This document shows, piece by piece, positions 1-16,638 of a stretch of DNA of 64,000 nt (position 1 is its first letter; every line of letters begins with the position of its first letter). The notes under the pieces were generated by a model. That model worked only from the letters and a program-made list of their open reading frames with translations, was not told where the DNA came from and did no database searches. Origin of the DNA: Sphaerisporangium siamense (GTDB lineage Bacteria; Actinomycetota; Actinomycetes; Streptosporangiales; Streptosporangiaceae); the NCBI RefSeq assembly GCF_014205275.1, contig NZ_JACHND010000001.1, positions 5,580,001 through 5,644,000 of the forward strand. Reading direction: 5' to 3'. The position numbers and the translations under genes are program-made.

Positions 1-3000
1 CGTCGGTTTATATGGTTAACGGTAGCCATATTCGCGGTGACATTTCCAGGATTGATGCAGGTGGCGGTTCCCCCACCCGCTGCCGCCGCCGCACGGACGG
101 TCGCCCCTGTCACGCCGGACCAGTTGTCCGGGTCGCCGGCCGGACTGCCCCACCTGGTCGACTCCAAGGCGACACAGATCGCCGGGCCCGCGACCGTCGA
201 CTCCGACGACTCCGAGGACGAGTCCTCCGCGGCGGAGCGGCGGAAGGACGAGGTTCCCAATGGAGCCCTGTCCCGCGACGTCCGAACCTACGGCGTGGTC
301 TCGGCGCGGCCGGATGAACGGGCCGCCCAGCGTGCGCCACCACGGTCCGCGGACGGCGATGGGACACGAGGAAAGAGAGATGCGGACGCCTCGGCTCGGG
401 TCGCGGCTCGGGATTGCTACAACCCCAAGTACAGCATCACCGCCACCTACAGGCCTGGCATGACGGTCGCTGAGAATGACCACGACTGGGAGGCGTTGAA
501 GACTTTCGTGGGTGTCCGTCCAGGGACGGATGCCACGTATTGGAGAGATCTGGGGCTCTGCTACGTCAAGCCACCGGCGGCTCCAGAGATCATTGACATG
601 TTCCCGCTGGACCAGGGCCTGGTCGGGGTCACGCCCGTGTTGTCCGCCTACGCTCGCAGCACCGGAGGCCCCTACGGCATCGACTACACCTTCCAGGTCT
701 GCGGCGAGGGAATCTCTTGCTTCTCCTCAGGGGTGATCGGTGACCGCGGCGCGTGGCGGGTACCGGCGGGCAAACTGGCCTGGGGCAAGTCGTACTCCTG
801 GACGGTCACCGCGAACGACCGCGGCACCGGCGGAGTGACCTCCAAGACCCGGGTGTTCCTCACCGGGGTGCGCCAGCCGGCCGTCACCTCGCAACTCGCG
901 GCGAACGGGGCCAACGGCCAGGAGTTCCACCAGCTCACCGGCAACTACACCACCTCGTTCACCGACGCGGAGGTCGCCACGGTGGGGCCGCCGCTGACGG
1001 TCTCCCGTTCCTACAACAGCCTGGACCCGCGCACTGACGGCATGTTCGGCGCGAGCTGGTCTTCTCGCTGGGATATGAAGATCGTCGAGGAGTCTGCGGG
1101 CGAGGACCCGACGGCCGTGGTGACATATCCCGACGGCCGGCGGGTGCGGTTCGCGGGAAATACCGGCGGGTCCTATCAGCCGCCTCCCGGCGTGTTCGCC
1201 ACGCTGGCCAAGACCTCGAGCGGTGGCTCCTCCGGTTGGCGGCTGATGGACAAGTCCGCCACGGTGTACGCATTCGACGCGCAGGGCCGTCTGACGGGCA
1301 TCACCGACAACCGCGGCCGGGCGCAGACGCTGACCTATGGTGCCGACGCGAAGCTGGCCAAGGTCACCGCGACCGGCGGGCGTTCGCTGACGTTCACCTG
1401 GACCGGGGATCACGTGACCGCCGTGTCGACCGATCCGGTCGGCGGTGCGACGCCGACCTGGACCTACCGGTATGACGGGGATCGGCTGACGCAGGTCTGC
1501 ACTCCGGGGGCCGCGCCCAACTGCACCGCCTATGACCACGACACCGGGTCGCAGTACCGCAGCCGGGTACTGGACTCCGATCCGGCCGGGTACTGGCGGC
1601 TCGGCGAGGCGAGCGGGACGGTGGCCGCCGACCTCGCGCAGGAGACGGGTGACGCCACCTACTCCGGCGCCGGCCTGGGGCAGCCGGGCGCGCTGGCGGG
1701 CACGCAGGACACCGCCGTTCAGGGAAACGTCGCGCTGCCGGAGAACACGGTCGCCCGGCTGGGCGGGCGGATGTCGGTGGAGGTGTGGTTCAAGACCTCC
1801 AGGAGCGGCACCATACTCTCGGCCGGGGACTCCGGCGACAGCGTCGGCGCCAACCGTCCGGTGCTGTACGTGGGCACGGACGGTAAGGTGCGCGGCCAGT
1901 TGTGGGACGACCCTCAGGCGCCCGCGGTGACACCGATCACCTCGGCCGTCGCGGTCAACGACGGCCAGTGGCACCACCTCGTGCTCACCGCGCAGAACGA
2001 GGGTCAGATCCTGTACCTGGACGGCCTTCGTGCCGGCACGCTGGCCGTGGGGCCGGACGGATTACGGCGCCAGTTCGCCTATCTCGGCACGGGCTGGATC
2101 TACAACTCTCGGGGATGGCCGGCCACGCCGCCGATGTCGGGCAACACCTACGCGGTCGGCTTCCCCTTCGTCGGCGGCACCATGGACGAACTGGCCGTGT
2201 ACGACAAGGTCCTGTCGGAGGCCGAGGTGCGGTCGCACTACGCGGCCCGCGCCGAGATGCCGTTCAAGCTGACGAAGATCACACTGCCGTCGGGGCGGGT
2301 GTGGGCGCGGAACGTGTACGACGCCACGACCGAGCGGGTCAAGTCCCACACCGACCAGCACGGCGGCACCTGGCAGGTCGGCTCCCCGGTCTACAGTCCC
2401 GTCACCGGTCTTGCGACGGTGACCGTGACCGACCCGCACGCCGGCAAGCTGGAGTACCGCCACGACGCCTGGCGCGGCTACCGGATGGTGTCCTCCAGCG
2501 ACCAGCTCGGCAAGACCACTGCCTACATGTACGACACCGGCGGCTACCTGACCAAGCTCACCGACCCCAACGGCAACGTCACCGAGACCTTCCAGGACGA
2601 GCGCGGCAACGTGGTCGGGACGAAGACGTGCCGCACGGCGTCGAGTTGCCAGACCGAGCACGTCTCCTACCACCTGAACAAGGACGACCCCTTCGACCCG
2701 CGCAACGACCGCGCGATCGTCGCGCGGGATCCCCGTTCCTCGTCGGCCACGGACGACACCTACGCCACCAAGTGGGAGTACACCTCGTTCGGAGAGGAGT
2801 CAAAGGAGACCACCCCCGCGACACCGGACTTCCCGAACGGGCGCCCGCGCACGTACGTGTACACCGACGGCACGGAGCCGGCGGCGGGCGGAGGGACCAC
2901 CCCCGCGGGGCTGTTGAAGTCGGAGAAGGACGCCAAGGGGAACGAGTGGAGTTACCGCTACACCGCGTCCGGTGACGTCGCGGAAGAGGTCCACCCGTCG

Positions 3001-6000
3001 GGGCTGGTGACGCGGTACGGCTATGACGCGATCGGGCAGCTCACCTCGCGCACGGAGGTGTCGGACGCGTATCCGGCCGGGGTGACGACCCGGTTCGGCT
3101 ATGACGCGCTCGGACGCCTGGTCACCCACACCGGCGCCGCCGTGCGCAACGAGATCAGCGACGTCACCCACACCAGCGAGACCCGGTACGCCTACGATCC
3201 CGACGGCAACAAGCTTTCCGACACCGTCGTCGACCTGACCGGCGGCGACGCCGAGCGCAAGATCGCTTACGATCTGGACGACTACGGACGGGTGAGCAAG
3301 ATCACCGGCCCCGAGGGCGGTGTCGTCCAATACTCCTGGGACCACACCGGGGCGCTGACGGCCGTCACGGACGAACTGGGAACCCTCTACAACTACGGAT
3401 ACACGGCGCGCGGCGAACTGGCCACGCAGACGCTCAAGAACTGGACCGGCAGTCCGGTCAACCCGCAGGCGCCCCGTGACGTGGTGCTGCACTCCAACGC
3501 CTACGATCCGGGCGGGCGCCTGGCGTCCGAGGTGGACGCGATGGGCCGCAAGGCGGCCTACGCCTACTACAACGATGACCTGCCGGCACGGACCGTCGCG
3601 GACGACGCCCGGCTGAACGGATCGACCACGCCGCGTGATGTCGTGGTCGAGGCCAACGACTACGACGCCGCCGGAAACCTCGTCCAGGTGATCGAAGGCG
3701 ACGGCCGTGTCCGCACTGACTACGGATACGACGCGGCGGACCGGCTCATCTCCGAGACGTTCGACCCTCTCGACCTCAACCGCAAGATCACTTACGTCTA
3801 CGACGCGAACGACAACGTCGTCAAGGAGACCGCGACCGGCGCCGGAAGCACCCGGGCCGAGGTCACCGAGTACGCCTACGACCAGCAGGACGAGGTCGTC
3901 CGGCGGACCGGGAAGAACGGCGACGAGGATCTGGTGAGCACGCGGACCGTCGATCAGCGCGGCCTCACCACCGAGGTCACCGATCCGCGAGGCAACCGCC
4001 AGGGCGCCGACCGGGCGGGCTTCACCACCACCCTGCGTTACGACGCGGCGGGGCGGCTCGTCGAGGTCAAGGCTCCGGAGGTCCAGGTGGAGCGCGCCGG
4101 TGCCGCCGCGCCCGCCCGTCCCACGACGCGCTACGGCTATGACGGGGCCGGGCTGCGCACGCACACCGTGGACCCGGAGGGACGTCGGTCGACGGCCACC
4201 TACGACCGGGCCGGCCGGGTGGTCGCCGCGAGGTCCCCGGCGTACACCCCTCCCGGAGGGTCCACGCTGACGCCCACCGTCACCTACGCCTACGACGCTG
4301 CCGGCCGGGTGACCCGGTCGACCGACCCTCGGGACCAGGTGACCACCGCCGAGTACGACGTGCTGGGCAACCGCGTGCGGGTCACCGACCCGGCACCGAG
4401 CGGCGGGCAGGGCGGCCGGTGGGTCAGCGAGTTCGACCTGCTCGGGGAGCAACTGGCCACCGTCGACCCGACCGGCGCCCGGATGGAGGCGACCTACGAC
4501 GATCTCGGCCGGCAGATCACGGCCACGATCATCGAGCGCAAGCCCACGACGGTCGCTCACACCACCAGGTACGTCTACAACGACGACGACGTGATGACGT
4601 CCGTGGTCAGACCGGGCAACCGCACCACCGGTTACGTCGTGAACGCCGCCGGTGAGGTCAAGACCGAGACTGACCCGGCCGGGAACAGTTCCACCTTCAC
4701 CTACGACCTGGCGGGCCGCACCGTGAAGGCGGCCGATCCGCTCGGCAACGCCACCGTCGCCGAATACGACCTGGCCGGACGGCAGATCGCGGCCAAGGAC
4801 CTCGACGACAAGGGCGCCACTCTTCGCACGGTCGGCTTCGGATACGACGCCGCCTCCAACCCGACCACCTTCACCTCCGGTGAGGGTTACACGACCAGCC
4901 GGAAGTACGACGGGGCCGGCTCGCTGATCGAACTGGTCGAGCCGGTGTCGGCCACCGATTCCATCACGACCAGGTACGGCTACGACGCCGGCGGCGCCCT
5001 GACCCGCACCACCGACGGGCGCGGCAACACCGTATGGACCACCTACAACGGACTCGGCGAGGTCGAATCGATCACCGAGCCCTCCACGGCGGCACACCCG
5101 CAGGCGTCCGACAGGACCTGGACCTACGTCTACGACGCCGACGGCAACGAGGTGTCGGAACTCCGGCCCGGCGGCGTCCGGATCGACCGCGAGATCGACC
5201 ACCTCGGACGCGTCATCCGCGAGGCCGGCAGCGGCGCCCAGGCGCAGACGCCCGAGCGGACCTTCTCCTATGACCTCACCGGCCGGATGACCGGCGTGGG
5301 CGACTACACCCTGGACTACGACGACCGCGGACTCCTGCTCAAGGTGTCCAAGCCGTCGGGACAGGTCGCGTCGTTCGCCTACGACGCTCTGGGATATCCG
5401 ACCGAGCGGAACGACACCACCGGCAAGACCACCTACACCTGGGAGGACAACAGGCTGGCCACGGCCGCCGACCCGGTGAGCGGACGTGCCTTCACCTACG
5501 GCTACGACAAGGCCGACCGTCTCACCACGCTCACCTCGGCGACTCCGCGCAACGTCCAGACCTTCGCCTACGACGCCCTGGACCGCCTGACGAGCCACAC
5601 CCTGGCGGACAGTGGCGGAAGCCAGCTCGCGAAGATCGCTTACGGGTGGGACAAGGACGACAACCTGGTCGCGAAGACGTCCCAGGGCACGGCCGGCGCG
5701 GGCGCGAACACCTACGGCTACGACCGAGCGGGACGGCTCACCTCCTGGACCGCGCCCAACGGTGACCAGACGATCTACACCTGGGACGCCGCGGGCAACA
5801 GAACCGGCGCCGGAGAGGACACCTTCCTCTTCGACGAACGCAACCGCCTCATCTCCGGGGGCGGCTCCTCCTACACCTACACGCCGCGCGGCACCCTGGC
5901 CACCGAGTCCGCCGGCGGTGCGACCAGGAACCTGGCGTTCGACGCCTTCGACAGGATGGTGTCCGACGGCGACGTCACCTATCGCTACGACGCGCTGGGC

Positions 6001-8121
6001 CGGCTCGACGCGCGCCGCGCGGCCGACGGGTCCGAACAGCGCTTCAGCTACTCCGGTCTGAACAACGACATCATCAGCGTGAGCGACGGCGCCGGGGCCG
6101 TGCAAGGCAAGTACGGGCGTGACCCGGCGGGCAACCTGCTGTCCCTGCAGGAGGGCACCGGGCCCGCGCTCGGCGTGATGAGCGACCTCCACGACGACGT
6201 GGTGGCGACCTACTCGGGGACCGCGGTGGTCGACTCCGCGGCGTTCACCCCCTTCGGTGAGGTCATCACGCGGACCGGCACGCCGCGGGCCATGGGCTAC
6301 CAGGGCGAGTGGACCGACCCGGACACCGGCAAGGTCAACATGGCGGCCCGCTGGTACGTGCCCGGCACGGGCGGGTTCGCCTCCCGCGACGACTGGGAGC
6401 CCGACTCCACCCCGTCGATCGCGCTCAACCGCTACACCTACGCCTACGGCGATCCGCTGGCCTACACCGACCCGTCGGGCAACTGCCCGATGTGCATCCC
6501 GCTGGCACTGCTCGCGCTGCGGATCGCCGCCCAGATCGCGGCACGCGCGCTGGCGAGGAAGCTCGCGCTGGAGGCCGCCAAGCGCGCGGCGATCGCGATC
6601 GCCAAGAGGGTGGCGGCCAGGAAGGCCTTGGAACTGGCCAAGCGGAAGGCCGCCGACATCGCCAGGAAGAAGGCGGCGGCGCTCGCGAAACAGAAGGCGC
6701 AGCGGGCGGCGGCCAAGAAGGCCCAGGACGCGGCCAAGAAGGCAGCACAACAGGCGGCGAAGAAACAGGCTAAAACACCGTCGAAGCAATCCAAGAATAC
6801 CAACAGGACGTCCAAGGGCCCGAAGTCCAAGACATCGAAGAACAACAAGACGTCCAAGGGAAACAAGTCCCCCAAAAAGCCTCAGGCCAAGAACCAGAGC
6901 AGGTCGGGCGGCAAGCCGTCCGGCAAGACCGGCGGAAAGTCGGCCGGCCCCAAGGGCGGCGGCAAGCCCACCGGGAAATCCGGAAGCGGCAAGGGCGGAA
7001 GCAAGCCGACCGGCAAGGGCGGAGGCAAGAGCGGAGGCAAGAGCGGAGGTAAGGGCGGCGGCAAGGGCGGCAAGTCCACCAAGTCTCCTCAGGAGAAGAA
7101 GAACGAGATCGCCGAGGAAGTGATCGACGAGGCTCTCGGTCTGGACCCGTCGTTCTCGGTGGGCGGCAACTCACCCATCGGCGGCGGCCGGGACGGCACC
7201 CCGAACCTGTGCACCAGCCTGGCGGCGTGCGCCCGCGACGTCGTCGAGGAAGTGGTGCAGAACACCGTCGAGGACCTGGTCAACGACCTGATCGACGACG
7301 TCGCCCCCGACCTGCCCCCGGGCACGCCCCCCGGCGCGGACTCCTGCCGCCCTGGTAACAGTTTCGTCGCCGGCACCAAGGTGCTCATGGCCGACGGCAG
7401 CCGCAAGCCCATCGAGGACATCAAGGTCGGCGACCATGTCGTCGCCACGGACCCGAAGACCGGCCGCGTTGACGCCGGCCCCGTGACCACCTTGATCACC
7501 GGCACTGGTGAAAAGACGCTGGTCGAGATCACCGTGGACATCGACGGCCGGCGAGGCGACAACACCGACAAGATCACCGCCACCGCCGGCCACCCCTTCT
7601 GGCTACCTCACCTTCGCAAGTGGCTGCCCGCCGGCGAACTCCAGCCCGGCGCATGGCTCCAGACCAGCGCCGGCACCTGGGTCCAGGTCACCGCCATCAA
7701 GACCTCGACCAGACACCAACGCGTCCACAATCTCACGATCGAGGGCCTGCACACCTATCATGTGGTGGCAGGCGACCAGGCCATCCTGGTTCACAATGAC
7801 GATCCCGATCCTTATCGCCGTCCCAAGGGGTTCCGGAAGGGTGTCCGGGCTAAGGTATGGGAATCCGCCATGGACCCCGACACCGGGCTGGTTACTGACC
7901 CCCTGACCGGTGAGGTGATGGACAAGAGCAAACGTTGGGATATGGGCCACTTGCCGGGCTATGAATTTAGGAAACATCGGCAGAGTGCTCTAGATCGCGG
8001 AATCAGTCGGAAGCAGTTCCTGGATGAGCATAACGATCCGACGCACTATCGCCCGGAACTGCCGTCCTCAAATAGCTGCCATCGAGGGGAAGATCACAGC
8101 GATGATTACTTTGGTCCGTGA
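1..8121 (+). CDS. Giant secreted RHS-repeat polymorphic toxin with LamG, Hint and GH-E nuclease tip (5' end outside window)
   Basis: The reading frame is open from base 1 and encodes about 2,706 residues before the TGA. Residues ~1-25 form a hydrophobic signal-peptide core preceded by RR, so the true start lies upstream and the GTG at 37 is internal. Domains in order: acidic Ser/Asp linker; DUF6531-like entry; LamG-like lectin fold (~521-754); long YD/RHS repeats such as YGYD and YAYD (~754-2084); RHS core ending NRYTYAYGDP...YTDPSGN (~2084-2161); Ala/Lys-rich helix and Lys/Gly/Ser linker (~2161-2367); Hint domain (GTKVLMADGS, TAGHPFW, AILVHND; ~2451-2599); tip nuclease (~2600-2706) with RWDMGHLPGYEF, typical of HNH/Endo VII GH-E toxins. 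By family knowledge the shell encloses the tip, Hint releases it and the tip cleaves nucleic acid in competitors. The tip is AT-richer than the body. The next gene is its predicted immunity gene. Confidence 0.93.
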   Translation, partial: RRFIWLTVAIFAVTFPGLMQVAVPPPAAAAARTVAPVTPDQLSGSPAGLPHLVDSKATQIAGPATVDSDDSEDESSAAERRKDEVPNGALSRDVRTYGVVSARPDERAAQRAPPRSADGDGTRGKRDADASARVAARDCYNPKYSITATYRPGMTVAENDHDWEALKTFVGVRPGTDATYWRDLGLCYVKPPAAPEIIDMFPLDQGLVGVTPVLSAYARSTGGPYGIDYTFQVCGEGISCFSSGVIGDRGAWRVPAGKLAWGKSYSWTVTANDRGTGGVTSKTRVFLTGVRQPAVTSQLAANGANGQEFHQLTGNYTTSFTDAEVATVGPPLTVSRSYNSLDPRTDGMFGASWSSRWDMKIVEESAGEDPTAVVTYPDGRRVRFAGNTGGSYQPPPGVFATLAKTSSGGSSGWRLMDKSATVYAFDAQGRLTGITDNRGRAQTLTYGADAKLAKVTATGGRSLTFTWTGDHVTAVSTDPVGGATPTWTYRYDGDRLTQVCTPGAAPNCTAYDHDTGSQYRSRVLDSDPAGYWRLGEASGTVAADLAQETGDATYSGAGLGQPGALAGTQDTAVQGNVALPENTVARLGGRMSVEVWFKTSRSGTILSAGDSGDSVGANRPVLYVGTDGKVRGQLWDDPQAPAVTPITSAVAVNDGQWHHLVLTAQNEGQILYLDGLRAGTLAVGPDGLRRQFAYLGTGWIYNSRGWPATPPMSGNTYAVGFPFVGGTMDELAVYDKVLSEAEVRSHYAARAEMPFKLTKITLPSGRVWARNVYDATTERVKSHTDQHGGTWQVGSPVYSPVTGLATVTVTDPHAGKLEYRHDAWRGYRMVSSSDQLGKTTAYMYDTGGYLTKLTDPNGNVTETFQDERGNVVGTKTCRTASSCQTEHVSYHLNKDDPFDPRNDRAIVARDPRSSSATDDTYATKWEYTSFGEESKETTPATPDFPNGRPRTYVYTDGTEPAAGGGTTPAGLLKSEKDAKGNEWSYRYTASGDVAEEVHPSGLVTRYGYDAIGQLTSRTEVSDAYPAGVTTRFGYDALGRLVTHTGAAVRNEISDVTHTSETRYAYDPDGNKLSDTVVDLTGGDAERKIAYDLDDYGRVSKITGPEGGVVQYSWDHTGALTAVTDELGTLYNYGYTARGELATQTLKNWTGSPVNPQAPRDVVLHSNAYDPGGRLASEVDAMGRKAAYAYYNDDLPARTVADDARLNGSTTPRDVVVEANDYDAAGNLVQVIEGDGRVRTDYGYDAADRLISETFDPLDLNRKITYVYDANDNVVKETATGAGSTRAEVTEYAYDQQDEVVRRTGKNGDEDLVSTRTVDQRGLTTEVTDPRGNRQGADRAGFTTTLRYDAAGRLVEVKAPEVQVERAGAAAPARPTTRYGYDGAGLRTHTVDPEGRRSTATYDRAGRVVAARSPAYTPPGGSTLTPTVTYAYDAAGRVTRSTDPRDQVTTAEYDVLGNRVRVTDPAPSGGQGGRWVSEFDLLGEQLATVDPTGARMEATYDDLGRQITATIIERKPTTVAHTTRYVYNDDDVMTSVVRPGNRTTGYVVNAAGEVKTETDPAGNSSTFTYDLAGRTVKAADPLGNATVAEYDLAGRQIAAKDLDDKGATLRTVGFGYDAASNPTTFTSGEGYTTSRKYDGAGSLIELVEPVSATDSITTRYGYDAGGALTRTTDGRGNTVWTTYNGLGEVESITEPSTAAHPQASDRTWTYVYDADGNEVSELRPGGVRIDREIDHLGRVIREAGSGAQAQTPERTFSYDLTGRMTGVGDYTLDYDDRGLLLKVSKPSGQVASFAYDALGYPTERNDTTGKTTYTWEDNRLATAADPVSGRAFTYGYDKADRLTTLTSATPRNVQTFAYDALDRLTSHTLADSGGSQLAKIAYGWDKDDNLVAKTSQGTAGAGANTYGYDRAGRLTSWTAPNGDQTIYTWDAAGNRTGAGEDTFLFDERNRLISGGGSSYTYTPRGTLATESAGGATRNLAFDAFDRMVSDGDVTYRYDALGRLDARRAADGSEQRFSYSGLNNDIISVSDGAGAVQGKYGRDPAGNLLSLQEGTGPALGVMSDLHDDVVATYSGTAVVDSAAFTPFGEVITRTGTPRAMGYQGEWTDPDTGKVNMAARWYVPGTGGFASRDDWEPDSTPSIALNRYTYAYGDPLAYTDPSGNCPMCIPLALLALRIAAQIAARALARKLALEAAKRAAIAIAKRVAARKALELAKRKAADIARKKAAALAKQKAQRAAAKKAQDAAKKAAQQAAKKQAKTPSKQSKNTNRTSKGPKSKTSKNNKTSKGNKSPKKPQAKNQSRSGGKPSGKTGGKSAGPKGGGKPTGKSGSGKGGSKPTGKGGGKSGGKSGGKGGGKGGKSTKSPQEKKNEIAEEVIDEALGLDPSFSVGGNSPIGGGRDGTPNLCTSLAACARDVVEEVVQNTVEDLVNDLIDDVAPDLPPGTPPGADSCRPGNSFVAGTKVLMADGSRKPIEDIKVGDHVVATDPKTGRVDAGPVTTLITGTGEKTLVEITVDIDGRRGDNTDKITATAGHPFWLPHLRKWLPAGELQPGAWLQTSAGTWVQVTAIKTSTRHQRVHNLTIEGLHTYHVVAGDQAILVHNDDPDPYRRPKGFRKGVRAKVWESAMDPDTGLVTDPLTGEVMDKSKRWDMGHLPGYEFRKHRQSALDRGISRKQFLDEHNDPTHYRPELPSSNSCHRGEDHSDDYFGP

Positions 8122-8720
8122 GTCCGGGAACGATGAGTTCCCCCGCTAGTCCGTCCAATCGGGCGATCGCGCGGCGTACTGCCGAAGCTTTCGGCAGTAG
8201 GCCGCGCGTCCACCGGTACCATGACGATCAGGGGCGCGGCTTCGTCGACATAGCTGCGGCGCAGGATGTGCCTCATGCAGGGGTAACGTCTTATGCGACC
8301 CTCGGGCTGTCGGGCGCCCCCATGGAAATGCCTGACGGTGGAGAGTGTCCACTGAGAATCGAGCTCTTAGGGGCATGTAAAAGTAGCTTCGAGAGTTTCG
8401 CTAACGCCTTGGCCGCATCGGCCATAAGAATAATCTCAACGCGTAAGTTCTGCGCTCCGGGTGTTATATTTCCAGATATTCTGACAACACCTGGCGAGGC
8501 GGGCGACATGAAGAACTTCGTTTTCCTGTCGCCTTTCTTGTGGGATGATCCGTTTGAGGCGATGGAACTGGACGATAAAAAAGTGGCATGGCTCCTTGCC
8601 GTCCCGATCTCCGATGCTGAGCTTCAATACGCGTTGGATAGAGGCGTTCCGGAGTTGGAGAGTATATTGGAAGCGAATTCAATCGACATGTTTGACTTGA
8701 ATCGTTCTTCCGTGTTGTAG
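8118..8720 (+). CDS. SUFU-family immunity protein
   Basis: This 200-residue protein starts at a GTG overlapping the toxin's TGA (GTGA), or at ATG 8133. The C-terminal half has the suppressor-of-fused signature: a hydrophobic strand, then WLLAVPISDAEL, YALDRGVPELESIL and FDLNRSSVL. Bacterial SUFU-domain proteins are established candidate immunity proteins encoded directly downstream of polymorphic toxins, and the overlap supports that role: neutralising the GH-E nuclease in the producer's cytoplasm. There is no signal peptide, as expected. Base composition is near 50% GC in places, for example around 8341-8400, unlike the flanking genes but like the toxin tip, so the two probably arrived together. 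Direct binding to the nuclease is inferred. Confidence 0.85.
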   Translation: MSPGTMSSPASPSNRAIARRTAEAFGSRPRVHRYHDDQGRGFVDIAAAQDVPHAGVTSYATLGLSGAPMEMPDGGECPLRIELLGACKSSFESFANALAASAIRIISTRKFCAPGVIFPDILTTPGEAGDMKNFVFLSPFLWDDPFEAMELDDKKVAWLLAVPISDAELQYALDRGVPELESILEANSIDMFDLNRSSVL

Positions 8721-8743
8721 GCTTGGCGTTCTTTTATCACGAC

Positions 8744-8775
8744 AGGCCCCACCGAATAAACTTCCGGCGGGGCCT
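8744..8775. terminator. Hairpin after toxin-immunity operon
   Basis: AGGCCCC (8744-8750) pairs with GGGGCCT (8769-8775), with an extra inner CCG/CGG. There is no T-run, as is common in actinobacteria. It sits between the immunity gene and the convergent integrase remnant and could serve both. Confidence 0.55.
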
Positions 8776-8821
8776 CGGGGACTGTTTGACGGCTACAGCG
8801 GTCGTGATCGTTTTCTGACGG

Positions 8822-9510
8822 CTACGTTTCGGGAGGGTCGTCGAGGGCGTCGCCCATGCGTTCGATGGCGCCGCGTCGGAGGCGGAGCCGGACGTGGGCG
8901 TAGGTGTCGGCGGTGATGGAGCTGTGGGCGTGGCCGAGCAACTCCTCGATCACGACCAGGTCCACGCCCTGGTCCAGCGGAAAAGAGGCGCACGAGTGTC
9001 TCAGGTCGTGAAACCGGATCGTGCGCAGGCCCGCACGCTGTAAGAGCGCTTTGAAGTCGCGGCTGACGTCGGCCGGGTTGATCATGCCGCCGCGCCGGGT
9101 GGTGAACACGAGCCCGGTCTCAGGCCAGAGCGCTCCGATGGCCTGACGCTCGCCTTCATGACGTCTGCGATGTTCGGTCAGGACGTCGACACAGGAGCCG
9201 GGTAGAGCGATACGCCGTTCGGAGTTGATGGTCTTGGTCGGGGCGAGCACGAGCCCGACCCCGTCGGGGATGTACTGGAGGGTCTGGCGGATGGTCAAGG
9301 TACCGCCGTCAGGTCCACATCCGTCCAGCGCAGGCCGAGAAGTTCGCCGCGGCGCATCCCGGTGCGCAGAGCCGGCGTGACCAGGCGTACGGCCGGGAAC
9401 CCTCCGCAGCCTCCAGCAGGCGGCCGGCTTCGGCGGCGGTGAGAGGTTCGATGCGCTGACGGCGCCCGGCGCTGATCTGGACGTTCCAGGCGACACCGCG
9501 ACATGCACCC
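8822..9510 (-). pseudogene. Frameshifted tyrosine-recombinase (phage-type integrase) remnant
   Basis: Read on the minus strand, the catalytic domain is spread over three frames. An N-terminal piece (RIEPLTAAEAGRLLEAAEG) and the first-Arg motif (TGMRRGELLGLRWTDVDL) lie in two frames near 9300-9460. The rest (TLTIRQTL, FHDLRHSCAS, ELLGHAHSSI, ADTYAHV) lies in the frame ending at 8822. All catalytic motifs (R, HxxR, H, Y) are recognisable, but at least two frameshifts separate them and no convincing N-terminal core-binding domain remains. It is therefore a recently inactivated integrase beside the horizontally exchanged toxin tip, and probably marks an old integration event. No attachment site or tRNA was recognised. 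Confidence 0.8.
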
Positions 9511-9847
9511 CGACAATGAGGTGTCAAGCATCTCCCGGGACAGGACATACCGCGCTCCGCGGCCCGCCGCGCGTCGGGCGGTCGCCGGCCGCGCTGCGGT
9601 TCTCCGGCCGGTCGCGACCGGCGCCGCCCACGCGCACATTGCCGACCAGGCGCCGCAGCCAAGGAAGCACCCTGCCAACGCGGCAACAGGACCATGAAGG
9701 CGACGGGTCAGGCCACGCCGGACAAACTGACAATCCCGGGGCTCCGCCCCTGCACCCCGGCCTTCCTCGAAGATGAGGGGAGTGGCTGGTGTGGAAGGGC
9801 GGTCACCTCATCCAGATCAGGCCAGGCGAGCATACGGCTGAGGATTC
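9511..9847. other. Intergenic stretch, no gene recognised
   Basis: No frame on either strand has recognisable protein features. A short GC-rich self-complementary run lies near 9750-9765 (GGGGCTCCGCCCC). The stretch probably contains decayed sequence belonging to the integrase remnant. Confidence 0.4.
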
Positions 9848-9889
9848 AACCGGCCGATCGGCAGGCTATGGGCCTGAGATCGGCCGGTT
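9848..9889 (-). terminator. Strong hairpin after the SpoU methyltransferase gene
   Basis: AACCGGCCGATC (9848-9859) is perfectly complementary to GATCGGCCGGTT (9878-9889), with a second inner stem CAGGC/GCCTG. It lies about 30 bp beyond the stop of the minus-strand methyltransferase and fits a U-tract-less terminator. Confidence 0.7.
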
Positions 9890-9921
9890 CTCTCATGGTT
9901 CCTAAGGCGTGGTCGCCGGCG

Positions 9922-10494
9922 TCAGGGGCTCTCGTTGGCGACCGAGGGAGAAGGGGGGGATGACCACTCCTGGCGGCGGGCTTCGGCGAGGGTTATGGCG
10001 GCGGCGGTGGCGACGTTGAAGGAGCCGACGCGGCCGACCTGGGGGATGTAGAGGGTTTCGTCGGCGGCTTCCAGGACGGCGGGGGAGCAGCCGTGGTCCT
10101 CGCTGCCGAGGATCAGGCAGATGTCGCGGTTCAGCCGGGCCTCGTGCAGGGGGACGGCGTCGGCGGTCAGTTCGACGGCGAGGACGTGGTAGCCGTCCTC
10201 CTTGGCGGCGCGGACGGCGTCCAGGGCCGGGACCGCCTCGTGCCAGGTCACCAGACGGTCGGTGCCGAGCGCCGTCTTGCCGACCTTGGGGTTGGTGGGC
10301 GGGGTGGCGTTGCCCGCGAGCCAGATCTGGTCGGCGCCGAAGGCGGCGGCGGTGCGAAAGATCGAGCCGACGTTGAACGGGCCGGTCACCGATTCGAGGA
10401 TGAGCGACAGACGGTTCTCGGTGTTGCGCCGCCAGGTGCGGTTGAGCCGCTTGACGTCGGTCGGCCGGAGCTGCCTGCGGGTTCCAGGGGTCAT
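9922..10494 (-). CDS. TrmH/SpoU-family RNA 2'-O-methyltransferase
   Basis: This 190-residue SPOUT methyltransferase transfers a methyl group from S-adenosylmethionine to a ribose 2'-OH in tRNA or rRNA. The three SpoU motifs are present: NVGSIFRTAAAFGAD (~41-55), LILGSEDHGCSP (~128-139) and IPQVGRVGSFNVATAAAI (~150-167), which form the knotted cofactor site. The length fits the minimal tRNA-type TrmH without an extra N-terminal substrate-binding domain. A short basic N-terminus (RRQLRPTDVKRLNRTWRR) may contact RNA. The substrate nucleotide cannot be read from the sequence. It is probably a single-gene unit or follows the upstream methyltransferase gene across about 150 bp. Confidence 0.88.
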   Translation of the reverse strand: MTPGTRRQLRPTDVKRLNRTWRRNTENRLSLILESVTGPFNVGSIFRTAAAFGADQIWLAGNATPPTNPKVGKTALGTDRLVTWHEAVPALDAVRAAKEDGYHVLAVELTADAVPLHEARLNRDICLILGSEDHGCSPAVLEAADETLYIPQVGRVGSFNVATAAAITLAEARRQEWSSPPSPSVANESP

Positions 10495-10644
10495 GTGTCG
10501 CTCATCGCTCTCGTCGGGACGGGTCGGTGGTCGTGTGGCGGTGGGCCGGACCGGGTGTGGCGTCGCGCGCGATCACCGGCCGGACGGGTGTCGGACGTCG
10601 CGGGCGGGCGGGGGTCGCGCTGGGGTGTCGGTGGTCGCCGGACG

Positions 10645-11280
10645 TCACGGGTGGTGTGGGGGGTGGCCGGTGGTGGGGCGGGCGGTGACGTGGAGGACAC
10701 GGTATGCCGAGCGGGACGCCGCGCGGGTCGTGGGCCAGCCTTCCTCCGACAGCCAGCGTTGCAGGGAGTCCGAGCCGAGGTGCTTCTGCACGACCAGGTA
10801 GGCGGCGCCGTCGGGGGTGAGGCGGTCCAGCCAGCGGGTCAGCATGGCGTGCAGGGCGGGTTTGCCGATGCGGATGGCCGGGTTCGACCAGATGGCCGAG
10901 AACCGCACGTCGGGCGGCATCTCGTCCACGTGAACCGGCCTTACTTTGTCAAGGCCCGTGGTCTTGGCGTTACGCGCGCACAGCTCCAGCGAGCGGCGGT
11001 TGACGTCCACCGCCCACACCGTCGCCTCCGGCGCCCGCGACGCCATGGTCAGCGCGATCGGGCCGTACCCGCAGCCGAGGTCGAGCAGATCGCCGGCCTG
11101 CGGGGGCGGCGGTACGGTCTCCAGCAGGACGCGGGTGCCCGGGTCCAGGCGGCCGGGGGAGAAGACGCCGCTGTCGGTGGCCAGGCGCAGGTGCAGATCG
11201 GGCAGCACGACGTCGACCGTGCCCGGCCTGCCGGCCGACTCCGGCCGCTCGTCGAAGTAGTGCGCCCCCTTGGACATCAC
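10645..11280 (-). CDS. RsmC-like class I SAM methyltransferase (MTS domain)
   Basis: A 211-residue class I methyltransferase. The SAM-binding glycine motif is DLGCGYGPIALTMA, followed by the acidic strand end VWAVDVN and a motif-IV-like IWSNPAIRIGK in place of the usual NPPF. This pattern matches the MTS-domain family related to 16S rRNA (guanine-N2) methyltransferases of the RsmC type; actinobacterial members are single-domain as here. The likely role is rRNA or small-molecule methylation in the cytoplasm. The start is ATG at 11280 or the adjacent ATG at 11277. It is encoded on the same strand as the SpoU gene, so a small RNA-modification cluster is possible. Confidence 0.8.
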   Translation of the reverse strand: MMSKGAHYFDERPESAGRPGTVDVVLPDLHLRLATDSGVFSPGRLDPGTRVLLETVPPPPQAGDLLDLGCGYGPIALTMASRAPEATVWAVDVNRRSLELCARNAKTTGLDKVRPVHVDEMPPDVRFSAIWSNPAIRIGKPALHAMLTRWLDRLTPDGAAYLVVQKHLGSDSLQRWLSEEGWPTTRAASRSAYRVLHVTARPTTGHPPHHP

Positions 11281-11464
11281 GTCAGAAGACGTTACCGCCC
11301 CCGGACCCCTGGTCGTGATCCGAGCGCCGCGTGCGCGTCCCGGCGTCGGGACGTCGCAGAGACACCGTGTCGGGGCGGGCTGACGGGGACGGCGGATTCG
11401 TACGGTGGTGGCTCAGGGGAGCCGGGTTCCGAGGGGCAGGGGGGCGGATTCGCGCGGCGGAGGG

Positions 11465-12412
11465 TCACGGGAGCCGGGTGCCGAGGAGCATGGCGGCGGC
11501 GGCCACCAGGAGGCCGGTGAGGGCTCCGGCGACCGTGAACCAGTGGCCGATCTCCTTGTTGACGATCTGGTAGCCGAGGGAGGTGCCGATCTGGCTGTAG
11601 ACGTCGCGCAGCTCGTCGCCGGACTCGGCGCTGTAGGCGCGTCCGCTGGTGCCGTCGGCCAGCGCCTGCAGCGTGGCCTTGTTCACCGGCACCTGCACGT
11701 CGCGGCCGTCGATGCTCACCGAGCCCTCCGGCGTGCCGTAGGCGATGGTGGACACCGGAACGCGGGCCGAGACGGCGGCCTGGATGGCCTCGTTGACCGA
11801 GCGGCCCGAGGTGTTGTCGCCGTCCGACAGCAGGACGATCGCCGACGGCGGCGGGTCGGTGACGGCCCGCTGGTCGAAGGACCGCACCGAGTCCAGCGAG
11901 TTGAACACGGCCTCGCCGATGGCGGTGCCCGGCCGGGTGGTCAGGTTGCCGATCGCGGTGACGACGGCCTGGTGGTCGGTGGTGGGGGAGATGACCACGA
12001 CCGCCGAGCGGGCGAAGGAGACCAGGCCCACGTTGAACCGCTCGGGCAGGTCCTTGACGAACTGCTGCGCCGCCTGCTGGGCCGCCACCAGGCGGGTGGG
12101 GGTGACGTCGGCGGCCTCCATGGACAGGGAGATGTCGACGGCGATGATGATCGTGGCGCGGTCCCGGGGGACGCGGGTCTCGTCGGCCGGGCGGGCCGCG
12201 CCGAGCACGAGCAGCGTCATCAGCACCAGGAACAGCGCGGCGGGCACGTGGCGGCGCCATCCGGGCCGCTCGGGCGCGACCAGGGCCAGCAGCGCCAGGT
12301 TGGTGAACCGTACGGCGTACCTGCGGCGGGCGAACTGGGCCAGGACGTAGGCCGCCGCCATGAGCGCCACCGCGGCGAACAGCCACAGCCATCCCGGAGA
12401 CAGAAAGATCAC
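11465..12412 (-). CDS. VWA-domain membrane protein (BatA-like), third gene of moxR operon
   Basis: A 315-residue protein. Two N-terminal membrane segments ([20 protein letters not shown] and [18 protein letters not shown]) precede a von Willebrand A domain with the metal-ion motif [15 protein letters not shown] and [10 protein letters not shown]-terminal membrane helix ([20 protein letters not shown]) follows. The start is a GTG at 12412 overlapping the TGA of the DUF58 gene (GTGA), which fixes it despite a much longer open frame. MoxR-DUF58-VWA operons are an established arrangement in which the ATPase and VWA proteins act as a chaperone-like unit, possibly for metal-cofactor insertion or envelope protein assembly. 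The client is not apparent here. Confidence 0.88.
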
Positions 12413-13401
12413 GCGCCTGCCCTCCTGGTGGTGTGCCGCCCGGCCAGGTGCGCGGTGCGGCGGTATCGCATGACGAACTGGACGATGTCGTACACCCAGT
12501 CCCGGTCGGTGCGCAGGACCAGGTGCCCGGCCCCGCAGCGGCGCAGCGCCAGGCGGGTGGCCTCGCGGTGGGCGCGGGCGGCCTCGGCGTAGTCGCGGCG
12601 GATCCTGGCGGTGAGGTGGATGTCGCGGGTGCGTCCGGTCTCGGGGTCGGTCAGAGCGACGCGCCCGACGTCGGGGAGCTCCAGCTCGCGGGGGTCCAGG
12701 ACCTCGACGGCCAGCACCTGGTGGCGCGCGGCCAGCCGCCGCACCGGGCGCTCCCACGCGCGCTCGGCGGCCGGGTCGCCGCCCGCGCCGAGCTCCAGGA
12801 AGTCCGACACGACGACCCGCAGGCCCCGTTTGCGGTGGGCGCGGCCGAGCCCCTCGATCGCCTCGGCCAGCGGCGTCAGGGGCCGGTCGGCGGAGGGCGC
12901 GCCGCGCGGCGCGTCCATGACCGTCTGCAGCAGGGCGTACATGGCGGCCCTGCCGGTGCGCGGCGGCAGGCGGTGCACCTCGCCGTCGTGCAGGACGTGC
13001 GCGCCGAACCGGTCGCCGACGCGGCTGCTCAGGAAGCCGAGCGCGCCGACGGCGGCCACCACCAGGTCGCGCTTCTCCATCGCGGCGGTGCCGAAGTCCA
13101 TGCTCGGGGACATGTCGGCCAGCGTCCACGTCTCCAGCTCGCGGTCGGCCACCAGGTCGCGCACGTGGGGCACGGTGGTGCGGGCGGTGACCGCCCAGTC
13201 CATGCGCCGCACGTCGTCCTCGCCGGGGACGTAGATCCTGCTGTCGCCGAACTCGCTGCCCGCGCCCGGCAGCAGGCCCTGGTGCTGGCCGTGCAGCAGG
13301 CCGTCCAGGCGGCGCACGACGGTCAGCTCCAGGCGCCGCAGGGCGTGCTCGGGGTCGCGCCCGGTCTCCTCCTCGGTGCGGGAGTCCTGCGGGGACGTCA
13401 C
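12409..13401 (-). CDS. DUF58 domain-containing protein
   Basis: A 330-residue protein with the DUF58 core [15 protein letters not shown] (~62-76) and, about 20 residues further on, the strand [17 protein letters not shown], which resembles a degenerate VWA metal site (DMSPS). No membrane segments are visible, whereas many family members are anchored. Its start overlaps the stop of the MoxR gene (ATGA, 13398-13401) and its stop overlaps the start of the VWA gene, so the three are translationally coupled. By family knowledge it is the middle partner of the MoxR/VWA system; its biochemical role is unknown. Confidence 0.88.
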
Positions 13402-14426
13402 CGCTGGGCCTGGTTCCAGACGACCAGCGGCGGCGGCACGGCGGAGAGGATCCGGCGGACCACCTCGTCGGGCTCGACGCCGTCGGCCAGGGCGTCGAAG
13501 GTGAGCATGAGACGGTGCCCCATGACGTCCACCGCGACGTCGCGCACGTCGTCGGGCAGCAGGTAGTCGCGCCCGCGCAGCAGGGCCAGCGCGCGCCCGG
13601 CCGCGACCAGGCCCAGGGTGGCGCGGGGGCTGACGCCGATCTCGATGGCCTCGGCGAGCTCGCGCAGGCCGTACTCGCCGGGGGCGCGGGTGGCCATGAC
13701 CAGCCGCACGACGTAGTCGGCGACGAGCTGGTGCACCGAGACCTGGTCGGCGAGCTTCTGCAGGGACGTCAGCCGCGCGGGGTCGAGCACCCGGCCGGGC
13801 AGCGGCGGCGAGACGCTCATGCGGTGGAGGATCTCCAGCTCCTCGGTGGCCGTCGGGTGCGGCACCCGCACCCGGAACAGGAACCGGTCGCGCTGCACCT
13901 CCGGCAGCGGGTACACGCCCTCGGACTCGACGGGGTTCTGGGTGGCCAGCACGATGAACGGCCGGGGGAGCGGGTGGGTGCGGCCGGCGAGGGTGACCTG
14001 GCGCTCGGCCATGACCTCCAGCAGCGCCGACTGCACCTTGGCCGGGGCCCGGTTGACCTCGTCGGCCAGCAGGAAGTTCACGAACACCGGCCCGAGCTCG
14101 ATGTCGAAGCTCTCGCTCGACGGGTGGTACACGCGGGTGCCGACGATGTCGCTCGGCACCAGGTCGGGCGTGAACTGGATGCGGGCGAAGGTGCCGCCGA
14201 CGACGGTGGCCAGCGTGGAGGCCGCCAGCGTCTTGGCCACGCCGGGCACGCCCTCCAGCAGGCAGTGACCGCGCGCCAGCAGCGCGACCAGCAGCCTCTC
14301 GATCATGTGGTCCTGGCCGACGATCACACGCCGGACCTCCGCGATGGACTGCTGGAGCAGGCGGAGGTCCGCGTCGGCGCCCTCGTCGGGACCGGATCCG
14401 TCACTGCGCTCTTCCGCAACGGTCAT
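13398..14426 (-). CDS. MoxR-family AAA+ ATPase
   Basis: A 342-residue AAA+ ATPase. Walker A is GVPGVAKT (~60-67), Walker B is [11 protein letters not shown] (~118-128), sensor 1 lies in [13 protein letters not shown], and the arginine-finger region is [11 protein letters not shown]. This is the canonical MoxR pattern, about 330 residues long. It opens a three-gene overlapping operon with DUF58 and VWA genes and presumably uses ATP to remodel a complex recruited through the VWA partner. The start ATG at 14426 is followed by an acidic, poorly conserved N-terminus. Upstream, 74 bp separate it from a divergently encoded membrane protein. Confidence 0.93.
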
Positions 14427-14500
14427 GCGGCCATTCCATCAAACGAGGCCCAAAGGTGCACGGCACCGTCACGGTGAGCCGGGTGTCGAGGTGTGCTTTC

Positions 14501-15253
14501 ATGTCAACCGTGGCCACTCCGCTGCAGTACGGCGACCCGCCGCGCCTGGGGGCGTACGTCGTGCGGGCGCGGCTGCAGGCCCTTCCCACCGGCTTCGTGT
14601 ACCTCGGGCAGGACTCCGACGGCCGGGTGGTGTCGATCGCGCTGCTCACCCGGGGCGCCGCGCTGGACGCCGCGGCCCGCGAGCGGTTCCTCACCTCCGT
14701 GCGCCAGGCGGCGCCGCCGCGCGGCGGCGTGCGCGGGTGGGTGGCCCGCGCCCGGGGCCGGGGCGCCGCGAGCGTGCCCAGGGTCGTGGCGATGGACGCC
14801 GGCAGCTCGCCGTGGGTGGCCGTGCCCTACGAGAAGGGCGGGCCGGGCGCGGGGTGGTTCCTGGAGTCGGTGCTGGTCACCGGCACGCTGATCGGCGAGA
14901 CGCACGGCCCGGACTTCGTGCCGTACTGGCTCGGTGACCGCGCGCCCGCGCTGCCGCTGCCGCCGCCGCCCGCGCCGCCGCCCACCGAGACCCGCCGGGC
15001 GGTGCTGGTCGCGCTGTCGGCGCTGGCGCTGCTGCTGACGCTGACCGGGGCGATCGCCTGGCTGCTGCTCGGGCCGCGCGACGAGGCCGTGCCGCCGTCC
15101 CGCCCCATCCCGGGCACCTACTTCCTGCCGACGCCCCCGCCGGTGCCGTCGCCGAACGACACGCTGAAGCCGTCGCCGACGCCCTCCCCGGGGGAGGGCG
15201 GCACCGGCACCGAGCGGCCCCCGTCGCCCCCGGACCCGGCGGAGGACATCTGA
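14501..15253 (+). CDS. Single-pass membrane protein with decayed protein-kinase N-lobe and Pro-rich tail
   Basis: A 250-residue protein read from ATG 14501; upstream in-frame codons look non-coding. Residues ~8-45 (PPRLGAYVVRARLQALPTGF, then VYLGQDSDGRVVSIALL) follow the layout of an actinobacterial Ser/Thr kinase N-lobe. The glycine loop is replaced by LQALPTG, and IALL stands where AVKxL carries the catalytic lysine. An alpha-C-like AARERFLTSVRQA and a hinge-like VPRVVAMDAG...PWVAVPY follow. The C-lobe is absent. One membrane helix (AVLVALSALALLLTLTGAIA) precedes a Pro/Ser/Thr-rich tail. It is read as a non-catalytic kinase relic with an extracytoplasmic tail, divergent from moxR. The function is unknown and the kinase similarity is by eye. 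Confidence 0.7.
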   Translation: MSTVATPLQYGDPPRLGAYVVRARLQALPTGFVYLGQDSDGRVVSIALLTRGAALDAAARERFLTSVRQAAPPRGGVRGWVARARGRGAASVPRVVAMDAGSSPWVAVPYEKGGPGAGWFLESVLVTGTLIGETHGPDFVPYWLGDRAPALPLPPPPAPPPTETRRAVLVALSALALLLTLTGAIAWLLLGPRDEAVPPSRPIPGTYFLPTPPPVPSPNDTLKPSPTPSPGEGGTGTERPPSPPDPAEDI

Positions 15254-16638
15254 GCGTCCCGGGGCGCGCGGACGGCGCGCGCGGCCAGGGCCACCAGCAC
15301 GGCGAGCGCGGCGGGGATCGCCAGCGCCCGGGGCAGGCCGAGCCACTCGGCGGCGCCGCCGATCAGCACGGGGCCGGTGAGCAGGCCCAGGTAGCCGAGC
15401 CCGGCGACGCGGGCCAGGGCGCGCCCGGCTCGGGCGGGGTCGCGGTTGCCGGCGGCCGAGAACACCTGCGGCACGATGCACGACAGGCCCGCGCCGAAGC
15501 AGGCGAACCCGGCGATCGCCGCGGCCGGGTGTCGCAGCAGCAGGGCCGCCGCCAGGCCCGCGCCGGCCAGCAGGCCGCAGGCGCGGACCAGCGGCGCGGG
15601 GCCGAACCGGTGCGCGAGCCGGTCGCCGGCCAGCCGCCCGGCCGTCATCATGATCGAGAACGCGGCGTAGGCGAGGGCGGCGACCCCGGCGGAGGCGGCC
15701 AGGTCCTCGCGCATGTACACCGACCCCCAGTCGGCCGCGGCCCCCTCACCGATCCCGCAGCAGAAGACGAGCACGCCGAGGAACAGCACGCCGCGCACCC
15801 CGCCGCCCCGCCGCGCCGCGCGGCCGCCGCCTGAGATCGTCCCTGAGGCCGTGACCGGGGCCACCCCCGCGGCGGCTGCCGAGGCTGTCCCTGAGGTGGT
15901 GATCGCCGGGGCCGTGTCCAGGGCCGTCCCTGTGGGGGGTGCCGAGGCCGCTCCCGGGGGCGGCGGAGCCGGGCGGGCGCGTACGGCGGGCATGGCCGGA
16001 AGGATCGCCCAGGCCGCGGCGGCGGCCAGGACGGCCAGCAGGGCGGCCGTCGCGGCGAAGGTGACCCACGCCGCGGCGTGCGCGTGCGCGAACAGCGCGC
16101 CGATCCCGGCGCCCGCGAACCCGCCGACGCTGAACGCGGCGTGGAAGGACGACATCAGCGGCCGCCCGCCCGCCCGCTCCACCTCCACCGCGACGGCGTT
16201 CATCGCGATGTCGAGCATGCCGTGCACCAGGCCGAACACCGCGAGCGACGCCGCGAGCGAGGTCAGGCCGGGCATGAAGGCCGGGGGCAGCAGGACGGCG
16301 GCCTGGGCGAAGGCGAGCGGGACCATGACGCCGACGGCGCCGCGCCGGTCGGCCAGCCGCCCGATGACCTGCATGCCGGCCAGCGCGCCCGCGGCGATGG
16401 CGAGCAACGCGACGCTGAGCCGCCCGTCGGACAGCGCCAGGCTCTCCTTGATCGCGGGGATGCGGGCCGTCCACACGCCGATGGCCATCCCGGGGATGGC
16501 GAACGTGACGTACACCGCCCACCGGGCGCGCCGCAGCGCCGCCCCGGGCACCGAAGAGGGGGGTACGGCGGGGGAGGTGGCGGAACGGACGGTGTCCCGG
16601 GAGCCGGAGGGCTCGGCCGGGCCGGGCGGGGTGCTCAT
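15118..16638 (-). CDS. MFS transporter (sugar-type, FucP/YbjJ-like)
   Basis: A 506-residue major facilitator with about 12 hydrophobic segments. Features include AIGVWTARIPAIKESLALSD at the first helix and GRLADRRGAVGVMV in the loop between helices 2 and 3. A long Ala/Thr/Pro/Gly-rich central loop (~215-275) separates the halves, and the second half begins GVLFLGVLVFCCGIGEGAAADW. The first-half pattern resembles the YbjJ/FucP group, so a sugar or small-polyol substrate is plausible but unproven. Its last ~45 residues are read from the strand opposite the Pro-rich tail of the convergent gene (136-bp overlap), so this C-terminal extension may be dispensable. Its ATG overlaps the stop of the DeoR gene (ATGA), forming a regulator-transporter operon. 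Confidence 0.86.
   Translation of the reverse strand: MSTPPGPAEPSGSRDTVRSATSPAVPPSSVPGAALRRARWAVYVTFAIPGMAIGVWTARIPAIKESLALSDGRLSVALLAIAAGALAGMQVIGRLADRRGAVGVMVPLAFAQAAVLLPPAFMPGLTSLAASLAVFGLVHGMLDIAMNAVAVEVERAGGRPLMSSFHAAFSVGGFAGAGIGALFAHAHAAAWVTFAATAALLAVLAAAAAWAILPAMPAVRARPAPPPPGAASAPPTGTALDTAPAITTSGTASAAAAGVAPVTASGTISGGGRAARRGGGVRGVLFLGVLVFCCGIGEGAAADWGSVYMREDLAASAGVAALAYAAFSIMMTAGRLAGDRLAHRFGPAPLVRACGLLAGAGLAAALLLRHPAAAIAGFACFGAGLSCIVPQVFSAAGNRDPARAGRALARVAGLGYLGLLTGPVLIGGAAEWLGLPRALAIPAALAVLVALAARAVRAPRDAQMSSAGSGGDGGRSVPVPPSPGEGVGDGFSVSFGDGTGGGVGRK

What the first reader, a model, noticed from the sequence alone, without database searches (positions are those of the whole stretch)
7350..8720. 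Hint-GH-E toxin tip paired with a SUFU immunity protein
One locus combines a Hedgehog-type Hint autoprocessing domain, a GH-E/HNH nuclease and a SUFU-fold protein overlapping by GTGA. Hint and SUFU later appear together in animal Hedgehog signalling, and bacterial toxin loci are the proposed source. This particular Hint + GH-E + SUFU combination is compact and testable.
Basis: partly seen in the sequence, partly recalled or inferred. Interest (0 to 1): 0.72.

Follow-up and report, generated by a model that had tools for sequence, protein, structure and literature searches.

The report
Swappable toxin tip with immunity gene
A large bacterial surface toxin ends in a DNA/RNA-cutting tip with its antidote gene next door, a pairing already known elsewhere, but the relic beside it belongs to mobile elements that appear to swap such tips by inserting at one exact spot in the toxin gene.

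Summary
A 2,717-aa secreted RHS protein carries a pretoxin-HINT domain, a GH-E nuclease tip and, just downstream, a SUFU-domain protein. The Hedgehog link is published too. The HINT is the pretoxin kind; the Hedgehog model stays below cut-off.

Added here: (1) tips at least 49% identical to this one have SUFU next in 49 of 52 loci across many phyla and never ankyrin; two exceptions end at a contig edge and one is split by a transposon. More distant GH-E tips mostly pair with ankyrin proteins. (2) A sibling species has the same locus (95% identical flanks) with a different tip and immunity gene. (3) A broken integrase follows SUFU. Its relatives (61% identity or more to an intact member) all lie against HINT-tip-immunity loci, against 0 of 15 more distant integrases. 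Displaced tips in those loci all begin at the same 14-base stretch inside the HINT gene. This points to integrative elements that replace toxin tips site-specifically. The window keeps only a relic.

The parts
1..8121 (+). RHS/YD-repeat polymorphic toxin gene (GTG start 33 nt before the window; N-terminal hydrophobic stretch that looks like a Sec signal)
   Evidence: ORF; RHS_repeat 1.1e-99, Rhs_assc_core 4.1e-16, DUF6531, Laminin_G_3. Signal reading is by eye.
7360..7797 (+). Pretoxin HINT domain (Ser at the first position, TxxH, terminal His-Asn); predicted to cut after Asn (7795-7797) and release the tip
   Evidence: PF07591 1.4e-18; aligned from Ser13 to HN with 8w20 and 2lwy. Cleavage is inferred.
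7750..7763 (+). HTYHV codons CACACCTATCATGT, the place of the 14-base crossover core CACACGTACTATGT in integrase-bearing loci (3 mismatches here)
7798..8121 (+). Toxin tip: 107-aa GH-E (HNH/EndoVII, His-Me finger) nuclease; GH at 7945-7950, Asn92 8071-8073, His95 8080-8082, Glu98 8089-8091
   Evidence: PF14410 1.3e-21; G50, H51, E56, N92, E98 invariant in 43 relatives, H95 in 42; model pLDDT 91
8118..8720 (+). SUFU-domain protein, predicted cognate immunity (GTG 8118, or ATG 8133)
   Evidence: PF05076 1.5e-27; SUFU fold; same gene next to 49 of 52 related tips
8745..8822 (.). Terminator-like hairpin GGCCCC..GGGGCC followed by two TGACGGC repeats (8787-8793, 8816-8822); similar stretches lie at the same place in L084 and L107 (L101 keeps the TGACGGC motif)
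   Evidence: role as integrase-related DNA is inferred
8822..9678 (-). Broken tyrosine integrase (two reading frames, no full N-terminus), relic of an actinomycete integrative element
   Evidence: PF00589 2e-16 and 0.0029 in two frames; 56-81% identical pieces to the intact L107 integrase
7808..9913 (.). Segment absent from the sibling species G186, which carries another tip and an Imm15-like immunity gene here; flanks 95% identical

Best explanation
This is a polymorphic toxin of an actinobacterium (Streptosporangiaceae). A secreted RHS shell carries, behind a pretoxin-HINT self-cutting domain, a GH-E nuclease tip that should kill competing cells. The downstream SUFU-fold protein should bind the tip and protect the producer and its kin. 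Shown: domains, folds, conserved catalytic residues, tip-SUFU linkage, and a tip swap against a sibling. Inferred: export, cleavage after Asn at 7797, nuclease activity and inhibition. The tip-SUFU pair probably arrived as a cassette with an integrative element, of which only the broken integrase at 8822-9678 remains (inferred, about 0.6; not included in the confidence below).
For: Pfam hits well over cut-offs. SUFU model matches 3k5j and human SUFU. Loci were collected by tip sequence alone: 49 of 52 with tips at least 49% identical are followed by SUFU, none by ankyrin; two exceptions are contig ends, and in the third (L084) a transposon-bearing insertion separates tip and SUFU. The tips ride on LXG, PAAR, RHS, DUF4280 or HINT carriers, as a mobile toxin module would. 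Tip and SUFU distances correlate (r 0.55; permutation maximum 0.28). Sibling locus has a different tip and immunity gene. GC falls to 0.55-0.56 in tip and SUFU against 0.69 in the RHS part and 0.72 in the window. Literature: B. subtilis GH-E toxin YqcG degrades DNA in vivo and is countered by YqcF (PMC8321402, PMC6562991). Integrase link.
Against: No activity or protection data. The tip has Ser93-Cys94 where relatives have Arg/Gln-Ser/Gly in the N-x-x-H motif. SUFU departs at two of 14 near-invariant positions (Ile103, Asn133). Foldseek found no PDB match for the tip. The mirror-tree signal may partly reflect relatedness. The window lacks an exact crossover core and a second attachment site.
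Confidence: 0.87

Rival explanations
1. The tip was exchanged by ordinary homologous recombination between HINT ends, and the integrase relic beside it is a bystander.
For: Sibling identity stays high up to about 7807, past the HTYHV codons, with mismatches thickening from about 7779. Most RHS-HINT loci of the genus have no integrase nearby. The window core differs from CACACGTACTATGT at 3 of 14 bases.
Against: The relic belongs to the one integrase subfamily that always adjoins such cassettes, in the same orientation and spacing, in the four actinobacterial RHS-HINT-GH-E loci found.
Confidence: 0.35
2. The locus is decaying: toxin or immunity is no longer active.
For: Unusual residues Ser93/Cys94 in the tip and Ile103/Asn133 in SUFU; the N. 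basaltis counterpart is broken in both tip and SUFU.
Against: Both frames are intact here; invariant catalytic residues are kept.
Confidence: 0.15
3. The SUFU gene is a general regulator rather than the tip's immunity protein.
For: Another SUFU protein is a vertically inherited gene beside rlmN in the sampled family members.
Against: That orphan is a different 345-aa protein; the window type is tied to this tip class across phyla.
Confidence: 0.05

Closest known systems
Tox-GH-E / Imm-SuFu polymorphic toxins (Zhang et al. 2012, PMC3482391)
   Same: Same nuclease family, immunity family, HINT, RHS carrier and phylum
   Different: The survey's table does not split GH-E tips into a SUFU-bound and an ankyrin-bound group; the word integrase does not occur in its held text
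Bacillus subtilis YqcG-YqcF (PMC8321402, PMC6562991)
   Same: GH-E nuclease tip (PF14410 per PMC9990079) with a next-door antitoxin of similar size (192 aa); that YqcF is a SUFU protein is from memory
   Different: LXG carrier exported by type VII secretion, no HINT or RHS
Streptomyces umbrella toxin structures 8w20/8w22 (PMC11062931)
   Same: Closest solved HINT-like domain (E 6e-24), same Ser and His-Asn ends
   Different: That particle belongs to another architecture; its tip was not compared
pSAM2-type actinomycete integrative elements (AICE)
   Same: L157 has an integrase, excisionase-like HTH, RepSA (1e-149) and an FtsK-like gene
   Different: No tRNA found at L107, L101, L084 or the window locus; the element joins inside the HINT coding region and supplies a new toxin tip and immunity gene

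Membership tests
Polymorphic toxin (RHS type) | Conserved carrier with exchangeable C-terminal tip | tested here: met
   Sibling G186: flanks 95% identical, unrelated tip and immunity; other paralogues have other tips
Polymorphic toxin (RHS type) | Adjacent immunity gene | tested here: met
   SUFU ORF overlapping or 12 nt after the toxin stop
Polymorphic toxin (RHS type) | Toxicity and specific protection | not testable with these tools
   needs expression experiments
GH-E nuclease (PF14410) | Profile hit with GH, E, N, E residues | tested here: met
   1.3e-21; residues kept
SUFU (PF05076) | Profile hit and fold | tested here: met
   1.5e-27; Foldseek to 3k5j and human SUFU
Pretoxin HINT (PF07591) | Profile over cut-off, nucleophile, TxxH, terminal HN | tested here: met
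   67.9 bits; Ser, TAGH, VHN
Hedgehog Hint (PF01079) | Profile over cut-off | tested here: not met
   23.9 bits against 29.7
Tip-swapping integrative element (proposed here) | Integrase of the L107 subfamily convergent to the immunity gene | tested here: met
   broken integrase 8822-9678
Tip-swapping integrative element (proposed here) | 14-base core at HTYYV codons | tested here: not met
   3 of 14 mismatches in the window
Tip-swapping integrative element (proposed here) | Displaced HINT-end plus old tip at the far end | tested here: not met
   no second HINT end in window 1-16000

The most novel reading that the evidence does not exclude
A family of pSAM2-like integrative elements of actinobacteria uses the HTYYV codons of the HINT domain in RHS toxins as its integration site. 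Each insertion supplies, in frame, a new HINT end, toxin tip and immunity gene and pushes the old ones downstream into a stack of displaced cassettes. The GH-E/SUFU pair in the window came by this route.
Probability: 0.6. Interest if true: 0.8.

Novelty: new variant of a known kind. Interest (0 to 1): 0.55.

Why it matters
The toxin-immunity pair itself is one more member of a predicted and partly tested kind. How polymorphic toxins exchange tips is usually credited to unspecified recombination. An integrase subfamily tied to one 14-base site inside the HINT gene would give a defined, testable mechanism, and explain why tip and immunity gene travel together and why tips pile up in arrays. The split of GH-E tips into SUFU-bound and ankyrin-bound groups gives a clean set for studying how one nuclease fold meets two unrelated inhibitors.

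Tried and rejected
SUFU search of viral contigs and GH-E search of phages gave nothing. PDB profile search and Foldseek with the tip gave no useful match. I considered a link between integrases and all RHS-HINT tips of the genus: rejected, only the window's of the 22 matches in 8 genomes has one. I considered tRNA integration: none found at the four loci scanned. The genome pattern search with CACACGTACTATGTNNTNGCNGG finds HINT ends in all 30 loci read, but most lack a close integrase, so the 14-mer alone is not proof of the element. Complex prediction of tip and SUFU was not available. The integrase-versus-HINT Fisher value mixes in four loci found through GH-E tips; the 13 found by integrase search alone are the fair set, and several of them share one array.

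Full report
What is there. Window bases 1-8121 are the bulk of a 2,717-aa RHS protein whose GTG start lies 33 nt before the window. It has 24 RHS-repeat stretches, an Rhs core end, a pretoxin-HINT domain and a GH-E nuclease tip. The next gene (8118-8720) is a SUFU-domain protein at 1.5e-27. The finding's coordinates are right. The HINT keeps the expected marks: Ser at the first position, TAGH, and a terminal VHN followed by Asp, which suits C-terminal release of the tip rather than splicing. Its nearest solved relatives are the Streptomyces umbrella toxin entries 8w20/8w22 and a bacterial intein-like domain (PMC11062931). The Hedgehog Hint model is below its cut-off.

Folds. With 45 aligned sequences the SUFU protein models at pLDDT 94, and Foldseek puts the gonococcal SUFU homologue 3k5j and human SUFU first. 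The tip models at pLDDT 91 with strand, strand and helix carrying His51, Asn92, His95 and Glu98, as in a beta-beta-alpha nuclease core (my reading), but has no PDB match.

Pairing. I collected 78 loci from GTDB genomes by tip sequence only. Of 52 tips at least 49% identical to the window's (window included), 49 have SUFU directly downstream. Two others end at a contig edge. In the third, Nonomuraea basaltis (L084), an insertion with an ISL3-type transposase separates tip and SUFU, and its SUFU is frameshifted. None has ankyrin. Of 29 rows with less similar tips (one locus counted twice), 24 have an ankyrin protein, 3 SUFU and 2 neither. The tips sit on LXG, PAAR, RHS, DUF4280 and HINT carriers in Bacillota, Pseudomonadota, Bacteroidota, Planctomycetota and Actinomycetota. 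One Clostridia contig repeats HINT + GH-E + SUFU (L057). Tip and SUFU distance matrices correlate at 0.55, above all 2,000 permutations.

What is already known. PMC3482391 lists Tox-GH-E in actinobacteria with HINT, RHS, Imm-SuFu and Imm-ank. YqcG of B. subtilis, a GH-E toxin, reduces chromosomal DNA in vivo and its pair with YqcF behaves as toxin and antitoxin. The proposal that Hedgehog HINT and SuFu came from such systems is in PMC3482391 and PMC12419801. So the finding as written is a member of a known kind.

The tip has been swapped. Sibling genome G186 matches window 1-7807 and 9914-15862 at 95%, but between these has an unrelated tip and an Imm15-like gene. Tip and SUFU have GC 0.56 and 0.55, against 0.69 for the RHS part.

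The relic next door. Just after SUFU lies a broken tyrosine integrase on the minus strand. Relatives lie in the same place behind SUFU in L084 and behind ankyrin genes in L101 and L107. L107 is intact and belongs to an element with RepSA, an FtsK-like gene and an excisionase-like HTH. Beyond this element, in L157, lies a second HINT end that starts abruptly at HTYYV and continues into a deaminase tip with an ORF behind it. A search of 395 class genomes with the intact integrase gave 13 places in 9 genomes at 61% identity or more. All 13 face a HINT end with a tip. Twelve integrases at 35-44% and three at 47-49% have no HINT or RHS match on the side examined.

The junction. In these loci 15 of 21 HINT ends carry CACACGTACTATGT exactly, against 1 of 16 in loci without this integrase; the latter come from the window's genus, so codon habits of the groups may contribute. 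All eight displaced HINT ends begin at this stretch or one base off it. Upstream they lose homology to HINT and carry an inverted repeat like TGACCTGCGAAAAAGCAGGT 36-37 nt before it; none of 13 full HINT genes do. The repeat pattern was drawn from these same sequences, so the counts are descriptive. One genome of another family (G863) holds six tips and at least four integrases in one array, with the full RHS-HINT gene at its head. The simplest reading is integration inside the HINT coding region, each event giving the carrier a new tip and immunity gene and pushing the old ones downstream.

Limits for the window. The window has only the broken integrase, a 14-mer with three differences and no displaced tip. 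Its sibling breakpoint lies between about 7779 and 7808, just past the core. Origin by this route is therefore inferred, at about 0.6. No paper describing the mechanism was found in two library searches, which cover open-licence papers only.

Verdict. Ordinary and well-supported toxin-immunity pair; less ordinary surroundings that suggest a specific mechanism for tip exchange.

Noticed in passing
L004:6228-7265 (G000:C1 7761227-7762264): A second, 345-aa SUFU protein lies between rlmN and cdsA-frr-pyrH-tsf in the seven of eight sampled genomes where both sides could be read (the eighth beside rlmN). SUFU matches occur in 193 of 201 genomes of the order, GH-E in only 5: a vertically inherited SUFU not tied to a toxin.
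   Followed up: partly
L190/L191 (G863:C777 22000-57000): Array of one full RHS-HINT toxin followed by five displaced HINT-end/tip cassettes and at least four integrases; the five displaced tips have no Pfam match.
   Followed up: partly
L084:2791-6220: Insertion with an ISL3-type transposase, a MarR-like and an NAD(P)-binding gene interrupts the GH-E tip in Nonomuraea basaltis; its SUFU is about 90% identical to the window's but frameshifted.
   Followed up: partly
L141:796-8903: In sibling G186 the RHS toxin frame is broken near the Lys-rich linker (two overlapping frames), either a real frameshift or a sequencing error.
   Followed up: no
L096, L100: Two Chryseobacterium loci have divergent GH-E tips (37-39% identical to the window's) yet a SUFU gene about 80 nt downstream: possible intermediates between the SUFU-bound and ankyrin-bound groups.
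   Followed up: no
window 6400-7080: Long Lys/Ala- and Gly-rich low-complexity linker between RHS core and HINT.
   Followed up: no
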